Below, in pieces: positions 4,731 through 34,534 of a stretch of DNA of 36,483 bases. The notes under the pieces were generated by a model. The model was not told the DNA's origin and ran no database searches. It saw nothing but the letters and a program-made list of their open reading frames with translations. Origin of the DNA: a virus; the IMG/VR virus record IMGVR_UViG_3300033145_002449, positions 1 through 36,483 of that record; one strand, written 5' to 3'. Position 1 is the first letter of the stretch; the number at the start of each line of letters is the position of its first letter. The position numbers and the translations under genes are program-made.

Positions 4731-4892
4731 GTGAACGCTGTATTGAAGCTTGTTTGCGCGCTATGTGCACTTGCGGCCCTCGGTGTGGGTCTCGCGCTCT
4801 GGGTGCATCCAGGGGCCGGGCTGTTTGCTGTTGGCTTGGTACTCTGGCTTGATCTCTTTGTGGGGAGCACTGCGCGATGGCTAAGACGTTAG
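4731..4892 (+). CDS. Short two-TM membrane protein, GTG start
   Basis: An open frame of 53 residues starting GTG-AAC (NAVLKLVCALCALAALG...) encodes two hydrophobic helices separated by WVHPGAG, ending STARWLRR. Similar small double-spanning proteins are common just upstream of portal genes in HK97-type phages. It overlaps the next start by 16 bases. No good ribosome site is visible before the GTG, so the exact start is uncertain; the frame is supported by its uninterrupted hydrophobic pattern and the positive-charged C-terminus. Function unknown. Confidence 0.6.
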   Translation: MNAVLKLVCALCALAALGVGLALWVHPGAGLFAVGLVLWLDLFVGSTARWLRR

Positions 4893-5482
4893 AGACGACC
4901 CTCCAGCTCACGCTCAACGGCAATTACGTTGATAGCGACGATCTCAACTCCTCCCGCGGCAATCTCATCTGGACCCTTACCGATACCCTCGCCAATGGTT
5001 CCGGTGCCGACCAAGCGAACCTGATGTGGTACGACACGCGCACGCTTGCGGCTACGAGTGAGGATCTGGATCTCTGGGGCATCACAGACGTCTTCAACGA
5101 TACGATCTATTTCGGCCGCGTCAAGGCACTCATCATCGAGAATACGTCAGAGACAGACGATCTCTATGTCGGCGGCGCTTCGAGCAATGCATGGGCGACA
5201 TGGGTTGGAGATGCCACGGACAAGGTGAAAATCAGGCCTGGTGGTTTCATGCTACTTTGGGCGCCGGATGCGATTGCCTACAATGTCATCGCGGGTACGG
5301 GCGATAAGCTCAAGATCGATGCGGGCAGTGCGACCATCACCTACAACATCGCAATCATAGGGACGACCGGGGCCGGGACGACGACAACGTCTACGACCTC
5401 GACGACATCTACGAGCACGTCTACGACGACTACGTCATCGACCTCGACCAGCACGACAACCACGACTACGACAGCGCCATGA
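4877..5482 (+). CDS. Virion-module protein with C-terminal Thr/Ser tail
   Basis: A 201-residue protein. Residues 1-167 are predicted to be a beta-rich fold (TLQLTLNGNYVDSDDL, then RVKALIIENTSETDDLYVGG, KIRPGGFMLLWAPDAIAYNV) resembling phage structural or decoration proteins; I do not recognise a named family. Residues 168-201 are almost only Thr and Ser and end with AP. The tail matches those of five other proteins here and is a candidate site for O-glycosylation by the phage enzymes at 21957-24772. The gene overlaps the portal start by 4 bases (ATGA), so it is co-translated with the portal and likely to be a head component. GGGGAG lies 10 bases before the ATG. Confidence 0.78.
   Translation: MAKTLETTLQLTLNGNYVDSDDLNSSRGNLIWTLTDTLANGSGADQANLMWYDTRTLAATSEDLDLWGITDVFNDTIYFGRVKALIIENTSETDDLYVGGASSNAWATWVGDATDKVKIRPGGFMLLWAPDAIAYNVIAGTGDKLKIDAGSATITYNIAIIGTTGAGTTTTSTTSTTSTSTSTTTTSSTSTSTTTTTTTAP
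5378..5479 (+). repeat. Thr/Ser codon tract 1
   Basis: About 34 codons drawn almost only from ACG, ACC, ACA, TCG, TCT and AGC encode the C-terminal Thr/Ser tail of the protein before the portal. The DNA is a degenerate ACG/TCG microsatellite, which creates a long poly-Val/Asp open frame on the opposite strand that is not a gene. Confidence 0.9.
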
Positions 5483-10340: not shown

Positions 10341-10703
10341 ATGGCCTATCAACCGAAGGTATATCGGGACCAGGGTGGAGATAGACTCGTCGTGGCCGAC
10401 GGCGGGCAGATCAAAATCGACAGTCCATCGGACGCTACGTGGCTCAATATTTCCTCGCCTGGAGCCAGTGTCGTGGAGACGGGGACGAACGAACCGGTCT
10501 GGTCGGGCAAAGTCGCACGTATCGGGATTACGATCGATGGCAGCACCTATTCCCTGATCGCGATCTCCGGGTCGCCGACGACCTCTACAACGAGCACGTC
10601 GACTACGACCTCGACCTCGACGTCAACGACGACGACCACGTCCACCTCGAGTTCGACGACTTCGACGTCTACGTCCAGCAGCACGACAACTACGGCTCCG
10701 TAA
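10341..10703 (+). CDS. Small virion protein with C-terminal Thr/Ser tail
   Basis: A 120-residue protein: residues 1-79 are a compact beta-rich domain (VYRDQGGDRLVVADGGQIKI, then ISSPGASVVETG and ARIGITIDGSTYSLI), and residues 80-120 are almost only Thr and Ser, ending TTTTAP. The globular part has the size of a phage head decoration protein or tail-spike plug, but I recognise no family. The tail has the same composition and end (AP) as those at 5378-5479 and 12454-12519. TAGGAGAACAGAGAA precedes the ATG. It is a likely substrate of the phage glycosyltransferases if those act on Thr/Ser tracts. Confidence 0.75.
   Translation: MAYQPKVYRDQGGDRLVVADGGQIKIDSPSDATWLNISSPGASVVETGTNEPVWSGKVARIGITIDGSTYSLIAISGSPTTSTTSTSTTTSTSTSTTTTTSTSSSTTSTSTSSSTTTTAP
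10578..10700 (+). repeat. Thr/Ser codon tract 2
   Basis: Forty-one codons of Thr and Ser ending Ala-Pro. The bases form a degenerate ACG/TCG/ACC repeat; this is the longest purely C-terminal tract in the window. Confidence 0.9.
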
Positions 10704-12542: not shown

Positions 12543-12989
12543 GTGCCAAGTGAAGCTGTCGGTTGGGGCATAGTGCTGACGGGCGACAAGGAACTGATCC
12601 GCAAAATGCAGCGACTTGCCGAAAAGACACAGAAGCGGATCGTCCAGAAAGCGATGAAGAAGGGGGCGGCGCGCGTCCGCAAGGCTGCGAAGCGACGCGT
12701 TCCGGTCGAGACCGGATTGTTGAAGAAGAGTCTTGGTTCAAAGGTTGCGCGGCGAAAACGCGACAAGGTCGTTGTCGGCATCATCGGCCCTCGGACCGGA
12801 TTCAAGAAGCAGATGCCGGACGGCTCATATCGGAATCCCGTGCGATATGCGCACCTGGTCGAACTTGGGACGAAGCGTGCCGGTGCCAAACCTTTCCTGC
12901 GCCCGGCGTTCGAGCAGGAGCGGGACGGTGCGGTCGCCGACATCCGCAAGAAGCTGTGGGAAGAGCTTCGCAAGGAGGCGAGAAAATAG
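12543..12989 (+). CDS. HK97 gp10-like tail/neck completion protein
   Basis: A 148-residue basic protein with the pattern ELIRKMQRLAEK, KKGAARVRKAAKRRVPVETG, LKKSLGSKVARRK, RYAHLVELGTKRAGAKPFLRPAFEQ, which is characteristic of HK97 gp10-like proteins (PF04883). It lies in the usual position after the head-tail adaptor and works at the head-tail junction. The start is GTG at 12543 with GTAGGAGGG upstream. In related phages the tail terminator follows directly; here about 2.2 kb of extra genes separate them. The stop is one base from the acyl carrier protein start. Confidence 0.9.
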   Translation: MPSEAVGWGIVLTGDKELIRKMQRLAEKTQKRIVQKAMKKGAARVRKAAKRRVPVETGLLKKSLGSKVARRKRDKVVVGIIGPRTGFKKQMPDGSYRNPVRYAHLVELGTKRAGAKPFLRPAFEQERDGAVADIRKKLWEELRKEARK

Positions 12990-12990
12990 A

Positions 12991-13242
12991 ATGCGGGCCG
13001 TTATCCTCGAAGCCATAGCGGCGCTGGCGCTGAAGCGCGTGACGGACGAGATGCCGATAGAGGAACTCGGTCTCGATTCGCTTGAGCTGGTGCAACTGGA
13101 GATGGAGGTGGGAGAAAGGTTGGGACGTGAGGCCGCGGCGAAGCTGAAGAAGAACATATCGATCATCGACCTCGCGCAAGTCGAGACGGTAGGTGATCTG
13201 GTGCGCGTGTATGAGGAGGCATTGGAGAAGAAAGGAGAATAA
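12991..13242 (+). CDS. Acyl carrier protein
   Basis: An 83-residue acyl carrier protein. The motif EELGLDSLELVQLEMEVGE places the phosphopantetheine-accepting Ser at residue 30 within D-S-L, preceded by MPIEELG and followed by helix II; a later segment IIDLAQVETVGDLVRVYEEAL matches helices III-IV. Length and helix order fit the AcpP family, although the loop after helix II (GREAAAKLKKN) is unusually basic. ACPs carry acyl chains on a 4'-phosphopantetheine arm added by the host enzyme. Its position within neck and tail genes, 1 base after gp10, suggests co-expression with virion proteins. It might acylate a virion component or alter host lipid synthesis; no acyltransferase or synthase is present in the window. 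AAGGAGGCG lies before the ATG. Confidence 0.85.
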   Translation: MRAVILEAIAALALKRVTDEMPIEELGLDSLELVQLEMEVGERLGREAAAKLKKNISIIDLAQVETVGDLVRVYEEALEKKGE

Positions 13243-13544: not shown

Positions 13545-14069
13545 ATGGCTACAGCTACTGTTATTCTGCCAATTGGTGCTGCTACATTGCCCGATGATTC
13601 GACCGGGAACAAAGCAGCAGCATTGCAACGGAAGAAATCTTCTGCTGCCGCACCAAGTCCACATTGGTTTGAGGCATTGTTTGATGATACGACTGAAGAG
13701 GCGATCTTGTTTAGTTTTGTTGTGCCAACCAATTATGCGAGTTCGCCTGTATTGAAGCTGTTCTACAAAATGGCATCAGCCACGAGTGGAACGGTAGAAT
13801 TTGAAGCACGAGTGATGTGTGTTTCGGATGGTGACGCACAAGATGTAGATGCTGATGCGTTTGATACTGCCAATTCGGGTAGCGCCACAGTACCTGCCAC
13901 TGCTGGTTACATAGATGAGATCTCGATTACGTTGACGAATGCGGATGGGATGGCTGCTGGCGATTTCTGCGTGATTGAACTTCGCCGTGATGCCGATGAC
14001 GCGACAAACGATACGGCAACTGGCGACGCAGAAGTAGTGGGCGCAAGATTTGAGTATACTACTACGTAA
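13545..14069 (+). CDS. Predicted beta-sandwich virion accessory protein
   Basis: A 174-residue protein, beta-rich, with segments ATVILPIGAATLPDDSTGN, FSFVVPTNYASSPVLKLFYK, EFEARVMCVSDGDA, ATAGYIDEISITLTNADGM, DFCVIELRRDADD. The arrangement resembles jelly-roll or carbohydrate-binding-like domains found in phage fibre and adhesion proteins. The DNA is more AT-rich than the surrounding head and tail genes, consistent with recent acquisition together with the LamG domain that follows. GAGGAGGAGCTGAT precedes the ATG. A surface-exposed binding role is inferred, not shown. Confidence 0.65.
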   Translation: MATATVILPIGAATLPDDSTGNKAAALQRKKSSAAAPSPHWFEALFDDTTEEAILFSFVVPTNYASSPVLKLFYKMASATSGTVEFEARVMCVSDGDAQDVDADAFDTANSGSATVPATAGYIDEISITLTNADGMAAGDFCVIELRRDADDATNDTATGDAEVVGARFEYTTT

Positions 14070-14078
14070 ACAAGAGAA

Positions 14079-15575
14079 ATGGCAATAGAATTTGATCCAG
14101 CAAGCTCACAATATATAGCGCTGCCGGCTACAGACGTCGCACACAATTGGACGGCAATGACACTAAGCGTATGGTTCCGTACTACAAATTCCACCGATTT
14201 AATTATGATTTATGCCGAAGGGCTTACAACTAATACAACGCCTCTCTTTCTGCTTTATGTTAATTTGGGGAAAATTTGCTATAGGCGAAGAGATGCTGGA
14301 GATACTGCAGAAGTTGCGGGGACAACAGATGTGGCCGATGGCGATTGGCATCACGTCTTCTGGATCAAGCTCGATATCAATAACTTTGAACTTTATTTAG
14401 ATGGCTCCGACACGCCGGAAAGTAGCAACAGTTCAGCGGACACATCCAGTTATTCCCCCGACACTCAAAATATAGGCGTGCTCGAACGCTCAACATTGTC
14501 GAACTATTTCGATGGTGAGATTGCTGGATTGGCACTTTGGAACGCCACGTTCGGCGCGAAAGAACGGGCACTTCTTTATCACGGTGGAAATCCGCGCTGG
14601 GATATTCCGCTGATGATTAGCCCAGCAAATCTGAAGATTTACGTTCCATTAGACGATTTTTCTGACGGCGTTACGGCATCTGGGGCTAATACAATAATTG
14701 ATAGGAGCGGCAATGGGAATCACGGAACACCGACTAATTCTCCGATTGGACGGGCAACGACGATTCTTTCTTACCCCGCATCGCCGATATACGTGCACGC
14801 TGAGGCGGCGGCCACTACAACGACGACTTCAAGCTCAACGAGCACCAGTACGACGACCAGCAGCTCAAGCACAACGACTACCAGTGGGTCGACGTCAACC
14901 AGCACGACATCGAGTAGTTCTTCGACGACGACAAGTAGTTCAAGTTCGACGAGTACAAGCTCAAGCAGCTCTTCAACAACTACGAGCGGGTCGACTTCCA
15001 CGAGTTCAACGACGACCAGTTCGAGCTCGAGCACGACCACGAGTGGGTCTACGAGTACGTCGACGACCAGCACGTCTACGACGACTACGACGCCGGGGCC
15101 GACAACTTCGACATCAACGAGTACATCGACTTCGACCACGACATCGACGCCGTCGCCGAGCTACCTCGAACCGGCGCTCTATTACGATCTGACGAATACG
15201 GCGGCGATCAGTACAATCATCGGGACGAGGGCCTATCCGGTCTATGCGCCGCAGGGCGCGCAGTTGCCGCGGATTACGTACAGTATCATCGCCAATACGC
15301 ACGAGCGGCATATTGCAGGCGGGACGGACCTGGCCCACCCGACTGTGCGGATCGAATGTTGGGCCGCCAGCCACCTCGAGGCAAAGGACCTTGCGAAGGC
15401 GGTCCGCCAGCGGCTCGACAACTTCACGGGTACACTTGGCGGAGGCACGACGACCGTGTCGGTCGACATCTGTTTCTTGCGGAGCGAGACTGATGAGTTC
15501 GTCCCGGAGGAGGAGGCAACGGGACGCGCGGTCTACAAGCGGACGCTCGACTTCGAGATATGGTACAGGGAGTAG
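14079..15575 (+). CDS. LamG domain - Thr/Ser linker - tail terminator fusion
   Basis: A 498-residue three-part protein. Residues 1-240 form a LamG/concanavalin-like domain (IEFDPASSQYIALP, MTLSVWFRTTN, DGDWHHVFWIKLD, FELYLDGSD, FDGEIAGLALWNATF), a fold that often binds sugars. Residues 246-361 are 116 residues of Thr and Ser with a few Gly and Pro. Residues 362-498 are a tail terminator (DUF3168-like) domain that is clearly similar to the complete terminator encoded by the next gene (ALYYDLTNT, YPVYAPQGAQLPRITY, GGTDLAH, DNFTGTLGG, DEFVPEEEATGRAVYKRTLDFEIWYRE). No start codon is close to the boundary, so a free terminator from this gene is unlikely. If built into the neck hexamer, it would display lectin-like arms. 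DNA is AT-rich in the LamG part and GC-rich in the terminator part. Confidence 0.85.
   Translation: MAIEFDPASSQYIALPATDVAHNWTAMTLSVWFRTTNSTDLIMIYAEGLTTNTTPLFLLYVNLGKICYRRRDAGDTAEVAGTTDVADGDWHHVFWIKLDINNFELYLDGSDTPESSNSSADTSSYSPDTQNIGVLERSTLSNYFDGEIAGLALWNATFGAKERALLYHGGNPRWDIPLMISPANLKIYVPLDDFSDGVTASGANTIIDRSGNGNHGTPTNSPIGRATTILSYPASPIYVHAEAAATTTTTSSSTSTSTTTSSSSTTTTSGSTSTSTTSSSSSTTTSSSSSTSTSSSSSSTTTSGSTSTSSTTTSSSSSTTTSGSTSTSTTSTSTTTTTPGPTTSTSTSTSTSTTTSTPSPSYLEPALYYDLTNTAAISTIIGTRAYPVYAPQGAQLPRITYSIIANTHERHIAGGTDLAHPTVRIECWAASHLEAKDLAKAVRQRLDNFTGTLGGGTTTVSVDICFLRSETDEFVPEEEATGRAVYKRTLDFEIWYRE
14814..15161 (+). repeat. Thr/Ser codon tract 4 (longest, internal)
   Basis: A 116-codon tract of Thr/Ser with regularly spaced Gly, including several near-copies of a block containing SGSTST. 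It links a LamG domain to a tail terminator. Imperfect internal repetition implies growth by slippage or unequal exchange. Confidence 0.92.
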
Positions 15576-15578
15576 CGA

Positions 15579-15989
15579 ATGGAAGCAGCACTCTATTACG
15601 ACCTCGTGAATACGGCCTTGATCAGCGCGATCGTCGATAGCCGCGTCTACCCGATCATCGCCGAACAAGGTGCGCAACTTCCCTACATCACCTATCAGCT
15701 CATCTTCGCTGGCTATGAGCGCCATACAGGCGGCGGCACGGACCTCGCGCGGGCCGTCATCCAGATCGACTGCTGGGCGGAGACGCATAAGGAGGTGCGG
15801 GACCTCGCCGTGGCGGTACAGAATCGCTATGACAATTTCACAGGTACGCTCGGTGGAGACGGCAATACAGCAGAGATAGACAGCTGTTTCCTGAAGGACG
15901 ACCGAGACGAATTCGTCCCCGCGCGTGAGGCGACGGGACGAGGCATATATAGACGCAGTCTGGACCTTGAATTCTGGTATCGAGAATGA
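15579..15989 (+). CDS. Tail terminator/tail completion protein (DUF3168-like)
   Basis: A 136-residue protein starting MEAALYYDLVNTALISAIVDS with YPIIAEQGAQLPYITYQ, RAVIQIDCWAETH, DLAVAVQNRYDNFTGTLGG and a C-terminal RRSLDLEFWYRE; this matches the DUF3168/HK97 gp11-like tail completion family. It caps the finished tail tube and docks to the head. It lies just before the tail tube genes as expected. It is a tandem duplicate of the C-terminal domain of the preceding gene, perhaps 60% identical by eye, and lacks the LamG and Thr/Ser parts. The ATG lies 3 bases after the previous stop. Confidence 0.88.
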   Translation: MEAALYYDLVNTALISAIVDSRVYPIIAEQGAQLPYITYQLIFAGYERHTGGGTDLARAVIQIDCWAETHKEVRDLAVAVQNRYDNFTGTLGGDGNTAEIDSCFLKDDRDEFVPAREATGRGIYRRSLDLEFWYRE

Positions 15990-16003: not shown

Positions 16004-16396
16004 ATGGCATCCCCATCAGTCGACATTGCAACGGGCATCACGATCACGTTCGGCACGAGTGAATTCACGGCCGAGATACTCGATGTCACGCCGCCGGGTA
16101 TGTCGCGCGAGGCGATCGAGACGACCCATCAAGGGACGACGGGACAGAAGACGTTTATGCCCGCCGATCTCTACGATTCGGGGGAACTCGGCTTCGATAT
16201 TCACTTCAATCCGGACACCAGCCCGCCGATTGGAAGTGCGGCCGAGACCATCACGATCACGTTCCCGAGCGGCGCGACTTGGGCGTTCACCGGGTTCATG
16301 ACCGGTTACGCGCCAAGTGCACCGCTGGAGGACAAGATGACGGCCTCGGTCACCGTCAAAGTCACCGGCGCGATCACGATCACACCAGCATCGTAA
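16004..16396 (+). CDS. Major tail tube protein, plain copy
   Basis: A 130-residue protein (ASPSVDIATGITITFGTSEF, TAEILDVTPPGMSREAIETT, GELGFDIHFNPDTSPP, AETITITFPSGATWAFTGF, GYAPSAPLEDKMTASVTVKVTGAI) resembling small siphovirus tail tube subunits, which stack as hexameric rings. The position between tail terminator and tail chaperone genes is canonical. It is about 82% identical over 127 residues to the product of the next gene, which has an extra Thr/Ser tail; this copy ends TITPAS. AAAGGAGATGAGAA is a strong ribosome site, as expected for an abundant protein. Confidence 0.88.
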   Translation: MASPSVDIATGITITFGTSEFTAEILDVTPPGMSREAIETTHQGTTGQKTFMPADLYDSGELGFDIHFNPDTSPPIGSAAETITITFPSGATWAFTGFMTGYAPSAPLEDKMTASVTVKVTGAITITPAS

Positions 16397-16408
16397 GGAG
16401 AGAAAACT

Positions 16409-16840
16409 ATGGCATCGCCAAATGTTGATATCGGCACAGGGATTACGATCACGTTCGAGACGAGCGGGTTCACCGCTCAGATTCTCGACGTCACACCACC
16501 TGGAATGTCGCGGGAATCGATCGATGTTACGCATCAGGGAACCACCGGGCAGAAGATATTCACACCGGGTGATTTGTACGATCCGGGAGAATTGAGCTTC
16601 GATATCCATTTCAACCCGGACACGACACCGCCGGTCGGCTCGGCTGCGGAAACGATCACGATCCGCTATCCGTCCGGGTCGACGTGGCAGTTCACCGGTT
16701 TCTGTACCGGTTATGCCCCGAGTGCGCCGTTGGAGGACAAGATGACCGGCACCGTGACCGTGAAGGTGACCGGCGCCATCACGATAGCGACGAGCACGAC
16801 GACATCGACGACGACCACGACCACGACAACACCGCCGTAA
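16409..16840 (+). CDS. Tail tube protein paralogue with Thr/Ser tail
   Basis: A 143-residue tandem duplicate of the preceding tube gene (about 23 differences over 127 aligned residues). It ends with residues 128-143, a Thr/Ser tail terminating in PP. Conserved tube segments are ILDVTPPGMSRESIDVTHQG, GELSFDIHFNPDT and GYAPSAPLEDKMTGTVTVKV. The duplication suggests a tail tube composed of plain and tailed subunits, comparable in principle to tails in which only some subunits carry a C-terminal decoration domain. TAAGGAGAGAAAACT precedes the ATG. Which copy dominates cannot be told from the sequence. Confidence 0.88.
   Translation: MASPNVDIGTGITITFETSGFTAQILDVTPPGMSRESIDVTHQGTTGQKIFTPGDLYDPGELSFDIHFNPDTTPPVGSAAETITIRYPSGSTWQFTGFCTGYAPSAPLEDKMTGTVTVKVTGAITIATSTTTSTTTTTTTTPP
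16790..16837 (+). repeat. Thr/Ser codon tract 5
   Basis: Sixteen codons of the second tube gene, nearly all Thr, ending Pro-Pro. It is the shortest of the six tracts. Confidence 0.85.
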
Positions 16841-20341: not shown

Positions 20342-21964
20342 GTGCCAGAACCTTTCTATGGATTCACGCGCAAGGATGCACGGCGGGCTGCGCGGGCGAT
20401 CCGGAAAACGGAGCAGATTGCGCAGCAGCTTTCGAAACAGACGAAGCGACGCCTGTACAGACCGCCGCTGCGCGACCTCGTGCCGATCTACAATGCATCA
20501 GGGTGGTCTATTCCGCCGGGGGGTGTGGCCGAGATAACGGGATGGAATTCAACTTATCGGGCCTTCGAGGTCGATCTGCCTTCGGGTGACAACGTCAAGC
20601 ATATCGTCATCTCTCCCGGTCTTATCCGAAATGGACAACAATCTTTCGCTTGGCGCGAGCGTGTCCACCGCGTGCTCTGTTCCGATTATGCATCACAGCA
20701 ATTCGGTTATCGTGTAGGTACAGCAGAGAATAGTTGGTTTGCGAAATTCAATCCTGAAGGACCTCTTGTCGTTCTCGGGCAAGTACCCGCCAGCGAGCAA
20801 TATTACGGTTATCCACCCGGTGTCGGCCTCATACGCGTTGCTTTCCTTTATCCTGACGAGCCGGTGTTTCTCGAAGCTCAAGTTGATATGATTGAAGACA
20901 GTACATTCTATGAGGCGAAATATCTGGATGTATGGGGGAATACCGGAGATAGTGTACAGGTAATCCGGCCCTACGGTGTCTGGATTGAAAGCGGTGCGGT
21001 CGGGTTCATAGGCCGTGATGCTTTTGGTAACTTGATGTTCATCCCAATGAAGGAGCCGGTTGAGCCAAAGACGGTCAACGATCTCAGCGCGAGCGGTGAT
21101 TCTTGGACTTGGCAACCGAGCTATGGAGCAGATAATGTCGGGGTCCGTGTTTCTATTCGCGGCGATCTGAAGTGGACATTGACGTTTGACCACTGGGGTC
21201 GACTACAAAACGTAAATGCAAGTCCGATTTCAACTTCAACAACTTCTTCGACTTCGACGACGACCTCAACGCCGCCTTATACGTCGACGACAACTTCAAC
21301 GACGAGTACATCAACATCAAGCACATCAACGTCAAGTTCGAGCTCGAGCACGACCAGTTCTTCGACTTCGACGAGTACGACCACGCCGCCAGGCGGAGCG
21401 ACTACGATCTTCTGGGACGATTTCGAAGATGATACACTCGGTAATGCACCTGGAGCACCACCGATAGGTGATAGCTGGACGGTGGTTGCAGGGACGCCGA
21501 CGGTCGAGAGCTACTTGTCGTCCCAGCGACTGCGGTTCGGCGAACCGACGGCAGGTGCGACCGAGACGATCCGTGGAGCGTTCACGGCTACGGCTGACTG
21601 CACGTACCAGGCCGACTTCGTCGCTACGAATACGAACGACAACCACTTCTTCAGGCCCGGGCATTCGGGCTTTGCCATATCGACGATTGCAGAGGTTCGG
21701 TTCGACGATGACGGCTATATCTACGCGAAGGACGGAACGGACGATGTACAGCTCCAGACCTACAATGCCGGAACCGTCTATACCGTGAAGCTCGTGCTCG
21801 ATAATACGAACTATACGTATGACGTCTACATCAATGGCGTTCTCAAGGCATCGGCAATCGACTTCGTCCAGAACGCAGCAACGACCGACCGGATAACGAT
21901 AACCGGCATTACATTGACGGATCAGTACGGCTACTGGGACAACGTGAGGGTGACATATGACTGA
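20342..21964 (+). CDS. Tail-tip/fibre protein with Thr/Ser linker and LamG-like end
   Basis: A 540-residue protein with three parts. Residues 1-295 begin PEPFYGFTRKDARRAARAIRK and include PPLRDLVPIYNASGWSIPPGGV, GLIRVAFLYPDEPVFLEAQV and TVNDLSASGDSWTW; this probably joins the tail tip. Residues 297-350 are a Thr/Ser linker interrupted by TPPYT and ending TTTPP. Residues 352-540 are a LamG/concanavalin-like domain (TIFWDDFEDDTLGN, SWTVVAGTPTV, GYIYAKDGTDDVQLQTYNAG, YTVKLVLDNTNYTYDVYING, YGYWDNVRV). It is the most likely receptor-binding protein seen. The start is GTG with AAAGGAATC upstream. The stop overlaps the glycosyltransferase start by 8 bases, so enzyme and possible substrate are translationally coupled. 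Confidence 0.8.
   Translation: MPEPFYGFTRKDARRAARAIRKTEQIAQQLSKQTKRRLYRPPLRDLVPIYNASGWSIPPGGVAEITGWNSTYRAFEVDLPSGDNVKHIVISPGLIRNGQQSFAWRERVHRVLCSDYASQQFGYRVGTAENSWFAKFNPEGPLVVLGQVPASEQYYGYPPGVGLIRVAFLYPDEPVFLEAQVDMIEDSTFYEAKYLDVWGNTGDSVQVIRPYGVWIESGAVGFIGRDAFGNLMFIPMKEPVEPKTVNDLSASGDSWTWQPSYGADNVGVRVSIRGDLKWTLTFDHWGRLQNVNASPISTSTTSSTSTTTSTPPYTSTTTSTTSTSTSSTSTSSSSSSTTSSSTSTSTTTPPGGATTIFWDDFEDDTLGNAPGAPPIGDSWTVVAGTPTVESYLSSQRLRFGEPTAGATETIRGAFTATADCTYQADFVATNTNDNHFFRPGHSGFAISTIAEVRFDDDGYIYAKDGTDDVQLQTYNAGTVYTVKLVLDNTNYTYDVYINGVLKASAIDFVQNAATTDRITITGITLTDQYGYWDNVRVTYD
21230..21391 (+). repeat. Thr/Ser codon tract 6 (internal linker)
   Basis: Fifty-four codons encoding a Thr/Ser linker between the N-terminal tail-tip part and the C-terminal LamG-like domain. 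It contains a poly-Ser run and a TPPYT break and ends TTTPP. Confidence 0.9.
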
Positions 21965-23867
21965 ACCTTTCATCTCCATCTGCATCGCATCGCGCCAGGA
22001 AGGTCCGGAAGTGCGTGCCACGGTAGAAGATGTCCTTGCCTCGGCCGCCGGGCCTATAGAGGTGATTGTGTGTGATGATGCCTCGACCGATGGCTCTTGT
22101 GACGGCCTCGACAAACTCGAGAATGTGACGCTATTGCAGAACGACAAGCCGCGAGGTGCAGGCTGGTCGATGAACCGGGCGATGCAGGCAGCCAAGGGTG
22201 ACGTGCTTTTCAAGATCGACGCGCATATGCGGTTCGAGCGTGGAATGCTACATGGACTCGCAAGATATGCATTGGAGCACAATTGCATTGTCTGCGGGAC
22301 GGTGAAGGGCTTGGGCGAAGGAAAGCTACGCGGTGGTGCGGTGATACACTTCGCCGACTGGGCCTTCCGGGACCACGAGATAGGGCTGAACTGGCGCCCG
22401 CCTCCCGAGGGGGATCGACCAGAAAGACGCCTTGCACTGATGGGTGCATGCTACGGGTTCCCGCGCAAGATCTGGAATCTGATGGGCGAATATCCGTCGA
22501 CGGCCGGTATTTGGGGTGCCGAGGAGCAGGCCATATCGGCCTGGGCCTGGCTGCATGATGTGCCGATATACGTCGTCCCGGGATGGGAAGCGCAACACCT
22601 ATACCGGTACAAGCAGCCAATACCGTGGGGGGGCCCGCCGATTTCCGATCGGTCGCTCAATATCCTGGTCAATATGCTGCGGCTCTTTGATTGGGAGACG
22701 TACAAGGGCGTCTGGCGTGATCCGAGCCTGCATCTCTTGGCGCCGGAGCACCAGATGGCACTGAAACTCTACGAGGCCGATGAGCAAGTGAAACCGCACG
22801 TCTGGAAGCGCGGTCGTAAGAAGACCGATGCGGAGTTCTTCCGGGATGTGATGCATATGCCGGCGATTGTGACGAACCGAGGTGCGGTTAAGCGGCTGCG
22901 GCCCATCTCCGTGATCGTGGCGGCCCGGAATGAAGGTCCCGAAGTCCTCAAGACCGTCTGCTCGTTCATCAACCAGGGACAGAGTCGATTCGAAATAATC
23001 GTCGTAGACGATGCCTCGACGGACGGCAGCATCCCACCTGACTTCCCGGACCAGGTCAAGAAGCACGTGAAATCCTGGTGGCGCGAGGACATCCACAAGC
23101 GGATCAAGGTCATTCGCCACGACGTGCCGCAGGGTTCCTCGCGTTCGAGGGCTGAGGCGATCCGTATTGCACGCGGCGAGATAATCTCCGTCTGGGACGG
23201 GCACCAGCGAATGAATACGTGGCTCGGTATTGAGAAGCTCGCTACAACGGCACAGGAACGCGGCGGGATCGTGGTGCCGGCCGTCCGGAACCTCGGTAAT
23301 CCGATCGACGGCAAGCATACGTGCGGGGCGCGGTTCCAGCTCAAGGGTGAGCCGTGGGGCATCCTGAACAAGCATCTCGAAAAGAGACCCGAAGAAATGC
23401 CGCCGCATGACAGTGATTTCGAGAATCACGATGCGATCGAACGGCGCGTCGCTGTCATCGGCTGCGGCTATACACTCACGCGCGAGACGCTCGAGGCGCT
23501 TGGTGGTTGGCCGGAATTGCCCGGTGTATGGGCTTATCAGGAACAGTGGCTCGGGTTCCGGGCCTATTTCCTCGGCATCCCGTGCTGGGTGCGCTGCGAT
23601 GTCCGAACCGAGCATAAGTTCAAGAAGGAGTTCAACTACCGCTGCACGCGCCAGGATTCACATGGGAACGGGCATTACGTCATAGCGATCCACTTCCCGG
23701 AGACATATGAAGGATTCTGGCGGGCTCGGCTGCCGAAGGATGTCTTCGTGCCCGATTATCGGGCCGAACGCGAGCGCTGGCTTCGGTTCCCGCGCATCAA
23801 GACTGAGCAGGACTTTTTCCGTGAATGTCTGGAGATAGACGAATGGCCGCCCCCCGTGGCAGTATAA
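21957..23867 (+). CDS. Tandem GT-A glycosyltransferase, GT27/GT2-like
   Basis: A 636-residue protein with two glycosyltransferase domains. Domain A (1-260): ISICIASRQEGPEVRATVED, CDDASTDGS, KIDAHMRF with Asp88-x-His90, and WGAEEQAISAWAWLHDVPI (Trp186) followed by His in EAQHLY. Domain B (315-620): ISVIVAARNEGPEVLKTVC, VDDASTDGS, VWDGHQRM with Asp414-x-His416, and WAYQEQWLGFRAYFLGIPC (Trp525) followed by RTEHKF. The DXH metal motif plus a WG-E-type motif are features of GT27 polypeptide GalNAc-transferases; ordinary GT2 enzymes usually have DXD. No membrane segment is present, so it should act in the cytosol. The natural targets could be the Thr/Ser tracts in the virion proteins. Donor sugar unknown; modification of DNA or host glycans is an alternative. 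Confidence 0.88.
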   Translation: MTEPFISICIASRQEGPEVRATVEDVLASAAGPIEVIVCDDASTDGSCDGLDKLENVTLLQNDKPRGAGWSMNRAMQAAKGDVLFKIDAHMRFERGMLHGLARYALEHNCIVCGTVKGLGEGKLRGGAVIHFADWAFRDHEIGLNWRPPPEGDRPERRLALMGACYGFPRKIWNLMGEYPSTAGIWGAEEQAISAWAWLHDVPIYVVPGWEAQHLYRYKQPIPWGGPPISDRSLNILVNMLRLFDWETYKGVWRDPSLHLLAPEHQMALKLYEADEQVKPHVWKRGRKKTDAEFFRDVMHMPAIVTNRGAVKRLRPISVIVAARNEGPEVLKTVCSFINQGQSRFEIIVVDDASTDGSIPPDFPDQVKKHVKSWWREDIHKRIKVIRHDVPQGSSRSRAEAIRIARGEIISVWDGHQRMNTWLGIEKLATTAQERGGIVVPAVRNLGNPIDGKHTCGARFQLKGEPWGILNKHLEKRPEEMPPHDSDFENHDAIERRVAVIGCGYTLTRETLEALGGWPELPGVWAYQEQWLGFRAYFLGIPCWVRCDVRTEHKFKKEFNYRCTRQDSHGNGHYVIAIHFPETYEGFWRARLPKDVFVPDYRAERERWLRFPRIKTEQDFFRECLEIDEWPPPVAV

Positions 23868-24772
23868 TCATCGTGGCATTCAACGAGGCCGAGAAGGGCT
23901 GGCTCGCCTCTTCGCTGGAGAGCGTCCTCGCCGCTGCGAATAGTGATGAGGTGATATTCGTCGATGACGCCTCGACGGATGATACGCCGCGGGTTCTCGC
24001 GCGCTTCCCGGAGGTCCGGTACCTGCGCCTCGAGAAACGCATCGGCACGGCACCGGCACGAAACCGAGGGGCGGCGATCGCCAAAGGCCAAGCCTTCTGC
24101 TTCCTTGATGCCCACGTGTGGCCGCGGGCGGATTGCTTCGACCTACTGTTCGGGCGCGTCCTCGAAACACGTGTGCCGATCATCGCTACACCGGCTATCG
24201 GCAATTCGGACTGGCGGAACGGCATCCCGAACATCGGAGGGCGATATCGCTGGAACTTCGGTTCGTGTTTGGCTTGGTCCTGCGCCCGCAATTGGTTCTA
24301 TCTCGGCATATATCGGAACAAGTCGCGGGGCAGGAACGAAGCCGTGCGCAATGCCGCCCACGGTTGTGGCTTGACGCTCACGCGGCGGACGTTTGAGATG
24401 ATCCGCGGCTGGGTGAATATGCCGGGATTCTGGGGCGGAAACGATGCGGCGATATCCGTGAAGGCCTGGCTCTGCGATGTGCCGATCGTGGCGCAGTTTT
24501 ATGCCCGCCTCATCCACAGCGAGAAGCCGACCACCTGGCATCACGCGCCGCTCAGGATGCAGGGGATGACGCGCATCTACGGTGCCCGGGCCCTATTCGA
24601 CGATGACATCTTTGAGGGTTTCTGGCTGCCGCGATTCCGGCAGCGGTACCGGTGGAGAGCGGGCTGGGATGAGCTGCTCGAACGCGGGCGGGCGGAACAG
24701 CGCGAGTTTGCACCTGCGAGGAAAAGGGACCAGTGGGAGTTCATTGAGAAATTCGTGGGAGATGTGAAATGA
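23843..24772 (+). CDS. Third GT-A glycosyltransferase, DXH type
   Basis: A 309-residue single-domain enzyme: SIIIVAFNEAEKGWLASSLE, FVDDASTDDTPRVL, RNRGAAIAKGQAF-CFLDAHVWP in two steps with Asp89-x-His91, and GFWGGNDAAISVKAWLCDVP (Trp197) followed by ARLIHSEK. The arrangement R-G-A...F-L-D-A-H...W-G-G-x-D...H is very close to GT27 polypeptide GalNAc-transferases. It is a diverged paralogue of both domains in the preceding gene. The ATG at 23843 is chosen because GGAG lies 8 bases upstream; it overlaps the previous gene by 25 bases. Possibly it starts the glycan while the two-domain enzyme extends it, or the reverse; order cannot be deduced. Confidence 0.88.
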   Translation: MAAPRGSIIIVAFNEAEKGWLASSLESVLAAANSDEVIFVDDASTDDTPRVLARFPEVRYLRLEKRIGTAPARNRGAAIAKGQAFCFLDAHVWPRADCFDLLFGRVLETRVPIIATPAIGNSDWRNGIPNIGGRYRWNFGSCLAWSCARNWFYLGIYRNKSRGRNEAVRNAAHGCGLTLTRRTFEMIRGWVNMPGFWGGNDAAISVKAWLCDVPIVAQFYARLIHSEKPTTWHHAPLRMQGMTRIYGARALFDDDIFEGFWLPRFRQRYRWRAGWDELLERGRAEQREFAPARKRDQWEFIEKFVGDVK

Positions 24773-25404
24773 CGGGACGCGAGATCGCCGAGGCACGCTG
24801 GCAGCGCGCGGAGGCCGAAGGTATCCACATCCGTCAGGGCAAGGAAGAGTTCATCGAGGCCTGCGGGCGGATAATGGCGGACGGACGAAAGCTGGACAAT
24901 CTGCTCGAGATCGGATCGCTTTGTGGTGGAAGCGCATTCGTTCTGGCAGGCTTGTTGTCGGAAGGGAGTAAGATAATCTTAATTGATGTATGTGATCGCG
25001 GCCAGAAAGTGGTAAAGGCACTCGATAAGACAATTGGCTTGTTATGCGAAGAAGGCTTTGATGTCAGGCTGCTCCGGGGTTTCTCACAACAGCCCGAAAT
25101 TATGATAAGGACCAGAAAGGAGCTTAGTGATGGCCGCGTCGGCATATGTCATATTGACGGCTGCCACTCCACGCACGTGGTGCTACAAGACTGGAAAGAG
25201 TATGGTTCTGTATATGTCGCAGCGGGTGGCTGGTGCGTCTTTCACGATGTCGTTGCACCTGGCGGGGTTCGGGTGGCATGGGAGACTATTCTGGCTGATG
25301 CTGATGTGGGGAAAACGTGGCAGGCACAAGTGGTTGGAGGTGAGAGCTGGTCGCGGGCTAATTTCTGGGCAACTGGGATAGGGCTTCTGCACAGGATGGA
25401 ATGA
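24769..25404 (+). CDS. SAM-dependent methyltransferase, sugar O-methyltransferase-like
   Basis: A 211-residue class I methyltransferase: SAM-binding LLEIGSLCGGSAFVLAG (Glu47, Gly49), IILIDVCDRG, then HIDGCHSTHVVLQDWKEYGS with Asp130 and His133, and GGWCVFHDVVAPGGVRVAW. This H-I-D-G-x-H...D...G-G...H-D-V arrangement belongs to the Methyltransf_24/CmcI/macrocin O-methyltransferase group, often acting on sugars with a divalent metal. Coupling by ATGA to the glycosyltransferase gene suggests that it caps or modifies the transferred sugar. The middle of the gene (about 24960-25260) is AT-richer than its ends. Methylation of a protein or small molecule is not excluded. Confidence 0.82.
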   Translation: MTGREIAEARWQRAEAEGIHIRQGKEEFIEACGRIMADGRKLDNLLEIGSLCGGSAFVLAGLLSEGSKIILIDVCDRGQKVVKALDKTIGLLCEEGFDVRLLRGFSQQPEIMIRTRKELSDGRVGICHIDGCHSTHVVLQDWKEYGSVYVAAGGWCVFHDVVAPGGVRVAWETILADADVGKTWQAQVVGGESWSRANFWATGIGLLHRME

Positions 25405-33568: not shown

Positions 33569-34534
33569 ATGGCGAAGACACACAAGCCAGCATATCTGCA
33601 GATATACCCGCGTGACGTTCTCGCCGACGAGAAGCTCAAGCAACTCTCTGATGAGGACCTTGGGCGCTGGTTCAAAATGCTCTGCCAGGCCGCGATTTCG
33701 CCCGAGCCGGGCCGACTCGTAATCACGAAAGGGAAGCGCCCAAATTGGAGTCAACTCTCAAAAACTCTCAATATCTCTATCGAAACTCTTAAAAACACTG
33801 TCAAAACTCTCGTCGAACTCGGCCTTCTCTCTCGGTCCAACGGTGGCGTACTCTTCTACCCTAATTTCCGTAACTTCTTGACACGTTGGGAGAAAGGGAA
33901 ATCGAAGGTTGCAGAAAAAGTGCAGCGAAATTGCAGAAAAAGTGCAGCTCCTTCATCTTCATCTTCATCTTCATCTTCATCTTCATCCTCCTCCCTACCC
34001 CCCTCCAGGGGGAATGAGGAGGAGGAGGAAATTCAAAACCCCGAAAAGACAGGGTCGCCTGACGGCGACTACAGGCATGCGCGGCGGTTCTACAAGGCGA
34101 CAGGACAGAAACCGGAGGAGGTGAGCGAGACGAAACTACAGGCGGGCCAGAGAGAAATTGAGCGGTTCATTGCGAGTTATTCCGAGGAACAGTTTGAGAT
34201 CTGCTGCTGGTGGATCGCACAGAGCCAAGCGAAGAAGTTCTTCTCGCCGAAGGTGCTGTGGGAGATCAAGGGTCAGGCGTTGCGCGACTGGCGCAAGGCG
34301 GGGAAGGAGAAGAAACAGGAAGGAGTGAGGCCGATGAAACCGGACGAGACAAGGCGAGAGCTGGCGAAACAGATCGAAACCTGTCCCGATTGCGGGACGA
34401 AGTTCGAGCGGATGGGCGATGAGCCGTTCGTCTGCCCGGAGTGCGGCATCACCGGGCGAGAAATCTGGCAGCGGACCGTGGACAGGATCACGAAGGGGAT
34501 TGCGGTCGGGAAAAAAGAGGAGGAGCTGTTCTGA
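33569..34534 (+). CDS. Replication initiator-like protein, wHTH plus zinc ribbon
   Basis: A 321-residue protein. Residues 1-110 are a winged helix DNA-binding domain (AYLQIYPRDVLADEKLKQLS, LGRWFKMLCQAA, TLVELGLLSRSNGGVLFYPN) like phage replisome organisers. Residues about 130-145 are a poly-Ser run encoded by CTTCAT hexamers, then an acidic patch. The C-terminal part ends in a zinc ribbon (CPDCGTKFERMGDEPFVCPECG). No helicase or polymerase is encoded in the window, so it probably loads host replication proteins. The centre of the gene holds phased DNA repeats that look like an origin, as in lambda O. AAGGGAACC precedes the ATG. Confidence 0.8.
   Translation: MAKTHKPAYLQIYPRDVLADEKLKQLSDEDLGRWFKMLCQAAISPEPGRLVITKGKRPNWSQLSKTLNISIETLKNTVKTLVELGLLSRSNGGVLFYPNFRNFLTRWEKGKSKVAEKVQRNCRKSAAPSSSSSSSSSSSSSSLPPSRGNEEEEEIQNPEKTGSPDGDYRHARRFYKATGQKPEEVSETKLQAGQREIERFIASYSEEQFEICCWWIAQSQAKKFFSPKVLWEIKGQALRDWRKAGKEKKQEGVRPMKPDETRRELAKQIETCPDCGTKFERMGDEPFVCPECGITGREIWQRTVDRITKGIAVGKKEEELF
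33753..33821 (+). repeat. Phased AACTCT repeats in initiator gene
   Basis: AACTCT or a one- or two-base variant begins at 33753, 33763, 33773, 33784, 33794, 33805 and 33816, an average step of 10.5 bases. The segment encodes a Leu/Thr-rich helix whose own 3.5-residue period would give the same spacing, so protein constraint may explain part of it. Confidence 0.55.
33909..34030 (+). repeat. Candidate replication origin: TGCAG iterons, CTTCAT repeats, hairpin
   Basis: A 17-base unit (TTGCAGAAAAAGTGCAG) occurs at 33909-33925 and again at 33931-33947. TGCAG recurs at 33910, 33921, 33932 and 33943, every 11 bases. The two copies are read in different frames, so the conservation is at DNA level. 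Six CTTCAT hexamers follow (33951-33986), then a pyrimidine-rich arm and purine-rich arm (CCTCCTCC ... GGAGGAGG, about 33987-34030) able to form a hairpin. Iterons plus an asymmetric strand inside an initiator gene resemble lambda-type origins. Confidence 0.65.

What the first reader, a model, noticed from the sequence alone, without database searches (positions are those of the whole stretch)
14079..15989. Duplicated tail terminator, one copy fused to LamG through a 116-residue Thr/Ser linker
The second half of one gene and all of the next are clear paralogues of one tail-completion fold. The fused copy would present six lectin-like arms at the head-tail junction if assembled into the ring; the plain copy could mix with it. 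A tail terminator carrying an adhesion domain through a mucin-like tether is an unusual architecture.
Basis: seen in the sequence. Interest (0 to 1): 0.82.

Follow-up and report, generated by a model that had tools for sequence, protein, structure and literature searches.

The report
Phage neck ring fused to lectin
An uncultured tailed phage carries two copies of the protein ring that caps its tail, one of them fused through a long Thr/Ser-rich, probably sugar-coated stalk to a lectin-like domain; this would give the virus flexible sticky arms at its neck, a combination not found in any relative examined.

Summary
ORF 14079-15575 is one open frame: LamG fold, a 121-residue tract with 108 Thr/Ser, then a tail terminator. 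The next gene (15579-15989) is a second terminator, 60% identical. Both copies are old (synonymous sites saturated) and under purifying selection. The fused copy has no start codon of its own, so it can only be made as the fusion. AlphaFold plus a PDB fold search gives the gene-transfer-agent terminator (Z 15.4), and the LamG part a laminin-G/pentraxin sandwich. Relatives have one unfused terminator. The LamG and the gene before it are a mobile two-gene cassette seen in 28 other loci. Five more proteins of this phage carry Thr/Ser tracts: C-terminal tails on the stopper, one of two tail-tube copies and two small proteins, and a linker in a tail-tip protein. The phage encodes three glycosyltransferase domains whose best solved relatives are polypeptide GalNAc-transferases, with their DxH motif, plus a sugar-methyltransferase-like gene. 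Best reading: an O-glycosylated tether displays the lectin at the neck, beside plain terminators. Ring incorporation and glycosylation are inferred, not shown. New variant of a known kind.

The parts
14079..15575 (+). Fusion gene: LamG - Thr/Ser linker - tail terminator (copy A), 498 aa
14079..14801 (+). LamG (ConA-like) domain, N-terminal
14802..15164 (+). Thr/Ser linker, 108 of 121 residues T or S, all ten Thr/Ser codons used
15165..15575 (+). Terminator domain copy A, no start codon of its own
15579..15989 (+). Plain tail terminator, copy B (136 aa), with AGGGAG upstream
13545..14069 (+). orfX: first gene of the mobile orfX-LamG pair; homologous to the C-terminal domain of a 758-aa protein in L186
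12136..12522 (+). Head closure/stopper Hc1 with C-terminal Thr/Ser tail ending TTTTTTTAP
12543..12989 (+). Neck1/HK97-gp10-like neck protein
16004..16396 (+). Tail tube protein copy 1, no tail
16409..16840 (+). Tail tube protein copy 2, C-terminal Thr/Ser tail ending TTTTPP
4877..5482 (+). Small protein before the portal gene (phrog_22694, unknown function) with C-terminal Thr/Ser tail ending TTTTTTTAP
10341..10703 (+). Small protein after the capsid gene, C-terminal Thr/Ser tail; two longer relatives score weakly for beta-helix there
20342..21964 (+). Tail-tip region protein with an internal Thr/Ser linker before a Sialidase-like CBM domain
21957..23867 (+). Glycosyltransferase with two GT2 domains (DAH and DGH motifs); nearest solved relatives are polypeptide GalNAc-transferases
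23825..24772 (+). Glycosyltransferase, one GT2 domain, DAH and WGGND motifs; nearest solved relatives polypeptide GalNAc-transferases (E 1.6e-15)
24769..25404 (+). Methyltransferase (Methyltransf_24; RMNT_CmcI over its cut-off)

Best explanation
The gene makes a modified tail terminator that hangs a LamG lectin-like domain from the head-tail junction on a long, stiffened Thr/Ser stalk. Steps: (1) an ancestral terminator gene was duplicated; (2) a mobile orfX-LamG cassette landed between the neck gene and the terminators, and its LamG gene became fused through a Thr/Ser tract to the N-terminus of the upstream copy; (3) the fused subunit enters the terminator ring, most likely in a minority of positions, while plain copy B fills the rest, as may happen for the duplicated tail-tube protein; (4) the phage's own pp-GalNAc-transferase-like enzymes O-glycosylate this linker and the Thr/Ser tails on the other proteins, keeping the stalk extended and coating the virion surface; (5) the LamG domain binds a surface glycan or other ligand and aids loose, reversible attachment. 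Shown by sequence and modelling: the fusion, both folds, the duplication and its age, the cassette, the tracts and the enzymes with their motifs. Inferred: ring incorporation, mixed rings, glycosylation, adhesion.
For: One open frame; copy A can only be translated as part of the fusion. Ter A/B: dS saturated, dN 0.34; tail tube 1/2: dS 2.0, dN 0.15, so the copies are old and constrained. AF2 of copy A: pLDDT 92, best PDB match the RcGTA terminator 6tba_4A, Z 15.4, rmsd 2.6, 129 residues aligned; in RcGTA terminator helices 1 and 2 are N-terminal and helix 1 contacts the stopper (PMC7296036). LamG fold. Second case: the L175 terminator (tail tube 52% identical) also runs in frame behind a repetitive N-terminal extension. 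orfX-LamG pair in 28 other loci, LamG unfused to a terminator there; GC falls to 0.45-0.49 across orfX-LamG against about 0.6 around it. Six Thr/Ser tracts, one on only one of two tail-tube copies. GT2 domains match polypeptide GalNAc-transferases, DxH and WGGND/WGAEE motifs. Unrelated phages with such tails on head or decoration proteins (L136, L167), and L106, encode GTs of this DxH/GGEN-GGEH kind. Capsid and tail-tube C-termini are glycosylated in mycobacteriophages (PMC12619734).
Against: No proteomics or images. T5: an N-terminal tag leaves its terminator monomeric (PMC11784142). The GTs might act on host glycans; PHROGs gives a weak GtrB-like match. The LamG model is moderate (pLDDT 66). 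More than 40 other contigs with Thr-tract proteins have no PF00535 hit, so the tails do not always go with such enzymes, and the GT link was seen post hoc. No close relative with the same fusion was found, so its conservation is untested.
Confidence: 0.5

Rival explanations
1. Copy B alone forms the terminator ring. Copy A has been co-opted as a neck decoration or adhesin anchor that docks on, rather than in, the ring.
For: An N-terminal tag blocks assembly of the T5 terminator. Copy B is the standard-length gene with a good ribosome site. Non-ring proteins decorate the terminator in phage 812.
Against: Copy A keeps the full fold and, by alignment, most conserved positions. An N-terminally extended terminator occurs in L175 as apparently the only copy.
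Confidence: 0.25
2. The fusion is made and then cleaved in the linker, giving a free LamG protein and an ordinary terminator A; the tract is a processing site rather than a tether.
For: In 28 other loci the LamG gene is not fused to a terminator, so a LamG protein free of the terminator is the usual state; an unmodified Thr/Ser tract would be open to proteases (inference).
Against: Thr/Ser tracts of the same make sit as plain C-terminal tails on other proteins, where cleavage would release nothing; no protease for it was identified.
Confidence: 0.12
3. Assembly error, or recent loss of a stop codon between two genes, so that the normal state is a separate LamG-Thr/Ser protein followed by a separate terminator.
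For: Only one sequence is available; the linker contains TTTTTPGP, resembling the TTTTTAP/TPP ends of the C-terminal tails; relatives have separate genes.
Against: Copy A lacks any nearby start codon, which a free gene would need; the frame is open through 121 low-complexity codons; saturated dS with low dN shows copy A has long been maintained.
Confidence: 0.07
4. The glycosyltransferases modify the host envelope (receptor masking, superinfection exclusion), and the Thr/Ser tracts are bare flexible spacers.
For: GtrB-like PHROG match; many contigs with Thr-tract proteins lack PF00535.
Against: All three GT2 domains have polypeptide-GalNAc-transferases as nearest solved relatives, with the DxH motif; six Thr/Ser tracts in one genome with the enzymes directly behind the tail genes.
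Confidence: 0.3

Closest known systems
Tail terminators of the gpU/gp17 fold (lambda gpU, RcGTA Rcc01690, T5 p142; PF11367)
   Same: Sequence profile, predicted fold, and position between the neck gene and the tail tube gene
   Different: Duplicated; one copy carries a LamG domain and a 121-residue Thr/Ser linker on its N-terminus. Known extended terminators carry, for example, sheath-binding domains
Virion O-glycosylation of mycobacteriophages (Freeman 2023, cited in PMC12619734; Che8 genes read here)
   Same: Phage-encoded glycosyltransferases; tail-tube C-terminus as a likely acceptor
   Different: Che8 capsid and tail-tube proteins end in short ...NKTGS and ...YSDGS, without Thr/Ser tracts, and Che8 gp108 and gp109 lack the DxH motif (DDDD and ESD instead); here long tracts on the stopper, terminator, tail tube and other proteins, with DxH enzymes
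Lactococcal neck passage structures
   Same: Neck-located proteins, some with carbohydrate-binding domains, shuffled between phages (PMC10684548)
   Different: There a separate neck protein; here the lectin-like domain is fused to a terminator
orfX-LamG adhesion cassette of many uncultured phages
   Same: Homologous orfX and LamG genes in the same order
   Different: Elsewhere the LamG gene is not fused to a terminator

Membership tests
Tail terminator (PF11367) | Profile score over the curated cut-off | tested here: met
   45.3 and 41.4 bits against 24.5
Tail terminator (PF11367) | gpU/gp17 fold | tested here: met
   AF2 pLDDT 92; Z 15.4 to RcGTA terminator, 11.7 to lambda gpU
Tail terminator (PF11367) | Gene between neck and tail tube genes | tested here: met
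   Hc1, Neck1, inserted cassette, Ter A, Ter B, tail tube
Tail terminator (PF11367) | Hexameric ring capping the tail | not testable with these tools
   No multimer prediction available
Laminin G / ConA-like domain | Profile score over the curated cut-off | tested here: inconclusive
   Window 22.1 bits, cut-off 22.9; relatives pass PF13385, 91.5 bits in L186
Laminin G / ConA-like domain | Jelly-roll sandwich fold | tested here: met
   Foldseek E about 1e-9 to 1e-8 to PAPP-A, perlecan LG3, PTX3 and neurexin domains
Laminin G / ConA-like domain | Glycan or other ligand binding | not testable with these tools
   No assay
Phage virion O-glycosylation (mycobacteriophage kind) | Phage-encoded glycosyltransferases | tested here: met
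   PF00535 three times over cut-off
Phage virion O-glycosylation (mycobacteriophage kind) | Hydroxyl acceptor residues at the tail tube C-terminus | tested here: met
   Tail tube copy 2 ends in a 17-residue stretch with 14 Thr/Ser
Phage virion O-glycosylation (mycobacteriophage kind) | Acceptor at the capsid protein C-terminus | tested here: not met
   Window major capsid protein ends ...EEAFARVTLA, no tail
Phage virion O-glycosylation (mycobacteriophage kind) | Glycan found on the virion protein | not testable with these tools
   Needs mass spectrometry
Polypeptide GalNAc-transferase (GT27) | DxH metal/nucleotide motif | tested here: met
   DAH, DGH, DAH in the three domains; aligned to DAH of 6s22
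Polypeptide GalNAc-transferase (GT27) | WGGEN acceptor-site motif | tested here: inconclusive
   WGGND, WGAEE, WAYQE
Polypeptide GalNAc-transferase (GT27) | C-terminal ricin-type lectin domain | tested here: not met
   Pfam finds only GT2 domains; so not filed as GT27, only as resembling it

The most novel reading that the evidence does not exclude
The phage runs its own mucin-type O-glycosylation: dedicated pp-GalNAc-transferase-like enzymes glycosylate Thr/Ser tracts on six proteins, and one glycosylated tract serves as a rigid tether that projects a lectin from a mixed terminator ring at the neck. Thr/Ser tails with DxH glycosyltransferases in unrelated phages (L106, L136, L167) would make this a recurring, unrecognised way of coating virions.
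Probability: 0.35. Interest if true: 0.85.

Novelty: new variant of a known kind. Interest (0 to 1): 0.64.

Why it matters
If right, it adds the tail terminator to the parts of a virion that can carry adhesion domains, suggests that duplication lets an essential ring protein accept a bulky arm, and points to phage mucin-like tracts paired with pp-GalNAc-transferase-like enzymes as a testable general system. Such enzymes could also be useful, easily expressed tools for O-glycosylating peptides.

Tried and rejected
(1) Assembly or frameshift artefact: not favoured, since copy A has no start codon of its own and both copies show long purifying selection. (2) Microsatellite slippage: rejected, all ten Thr/Ser codons used. 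Most tracts share no longer exact DNA than codon shuffles; linker/4877-tail (21 nt, null max 19) and linker/tip-linker (22 nt, null max 16) do. (3) Terminator fusions elsewhere: of 45 terminator ORFs in fetched loci only the window and L175 have more than 30 residues before the domain. In a PF11367 survey of 398 and 294 genomes (two phyla) ten with unusually long open frames were read: in nine a start codon lies near the domain edge and the upstream frame looks like a GC-rich shadow frame, and the tenth (L265) is a sub-cut-off match inside an unrelated-looking protein. (4) Close relatives with the same fusion: none in viral or genome contigs. (6) A combined full-length alignment A3 misaligned LamG rows, so the domains were modelled apart. 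(7) Che8 as a template: its enzymes and acceptors differ.

Full report
What was checked. The window is a 36.5 kb virus record. ORF 14079-15575 is continuous. Profiles place a tail terminator at its C-terminal end and in the next gene; the two are 60% identical over 136 residues. The N-terminal 240 residues are a LamG domain: weak by Pfam on their own, clear through relatives and by fold. Between them lie 121 codons of which 108 are Thr or Ser, using all ten codons.

The fusion is real as a gene. There is no ATG, GTG or TTG between 14793 and 15264, which already lies inside the terminator domain, and the position of the old start Met is Leu CTC. Copy A therefore can only be made as the fusion. 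Synonymous differences between the copies are saturated (pS 0.77) while dN is 0.34, so both have been kept for long. The plain copy follows directly with an AGGGAG ribosome site.

Fold and place. The AF2 model of copy A (pLDDT 92) matches solved terminators, best the gene-transfer-agent one (Z 15.4). There the two N-terminal helices sit at the stopper side (PMC7296036), and in phage 812 the helices surround the channel sheets on the outside (PMC12886913). An N-terminal arm would thus leave near the stopper-terminator joint. The counter-evidence is T5, where the N-terminus helps bind the neighbour and an N-terminal tag gives monomers (PMC11784142); this is the main reason to expect few fused subunits per ring, with copy B as the rest.

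Relatives. In loci found through the capsid and tail-tube proteins, the genes run Hc1, Neck1, terminator, tail tube, with one terminator. Only L175 has a comparable extension: a repetitive segment read in frame into the terminator, with a GTG 8 codons before the domain. The capsid relatives carry no Thr/Ser tracts of this kind.

The cassette. The gene before the fusion, orfX, and the LamG part have homologues in the same order in 28 other loci (some near-identical), where LamG is not fused to a terminator. In L186 orfX is the C-terminal domain of a 758-aa protein and LamG the next gene, ending close to where the window's LamG passes into the linker. GC drops to 0.45-0.49 over these two genes. 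So an adhesion-type cassette was acquired and joined to a terminator copy.

The wider pattern. Thr/Ser tails also end Hc1, tail tube copy 2 and proteins 4877-5482 and 10341-10703, and a Thr/Ser linker precedes a CBM-like domain in 20342-21964. A pattern search for TTTTTT(A/P)P-stop in IMG/VR found such tails in unrelated phages, and in those contigs tails sit on a major head protein (L167, L114), major tail protein (L127, L157) and head decoration protein (L136).

The enzymes. Behind the tail genes lie three GT2 domains in two genes and a methyltransferase with RMNT_CmcI similarity. Their nearest solved relatives are polypeptide GalNAc-transferases, with DxH and WGGEN-like motifs aligned. They lack the ricin domain and are not filed as that family. 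L106, L136 and L167 encode DxH GTs with GGEN or GGEH, whereas most other Thr-tract contigs with a GT have a DDDD type and many have none. This supports, but does not prove, that the tails are acceptors. Mycobacteriophage capsid and tail-tube C-termini are glycosylated (PMC12619734); Che8, read here, has short acceptor ends, and its gp108 and gp109 lack the DxH motif.

Verdict. The idea of lectin-bearing terminators is plausible and now better placed: one of six possible O-glycosylation tracts, a mobile LamG cassette, and a duplicated ring protein. What is shown is sequence, fold, duplication and motif; incorporation, glycosylation and adhesion are inferred.

Noticed in passing
L167:9195-10565, L114:5051-6376, L095:667-2010, L127:5457-6029, L157:3319-3882, L136:7811-8317: C-terminal Thr/Ser tails, mostly ending TTTTTAP, on capsid, tail-tube and decoration proteins of phages unrelated to the window; in L127 and L157 on proteins of phrog_807, described as major tail protein with Ig-like domain.
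   Followed up: partly
window 12988-13242: Small gene for an acyl-carrier-protein-like protein (PF00550) between the neck gene and the cassette.
   Followed up: no
window 16004-16840: Tail tube gene duplicated (82% identity); only the second copy has a Thr/Ser tail, suggesting a mixed tube.
   Followed up: partly
L013:10589-11605, L027:5902-6891: Relatives of window protein 10341-10703 are longer; their C-terminal parts score weakly for beta-helix where the window has a Thr/Ser tail.
   Followed up: partly
L175:5002-5952: Terminator with an N-terminal extension of degenerate SGEAFGTATV-like repeats; no Pfam family, no other copy in the fetched loci.
   Followed up: partly
window 33941-34006: Poly-serine run (about 14 Ser) inside the protein of ORF 33569-34534; composed differently from the Thr/Ser tracts.
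   Followed up: no
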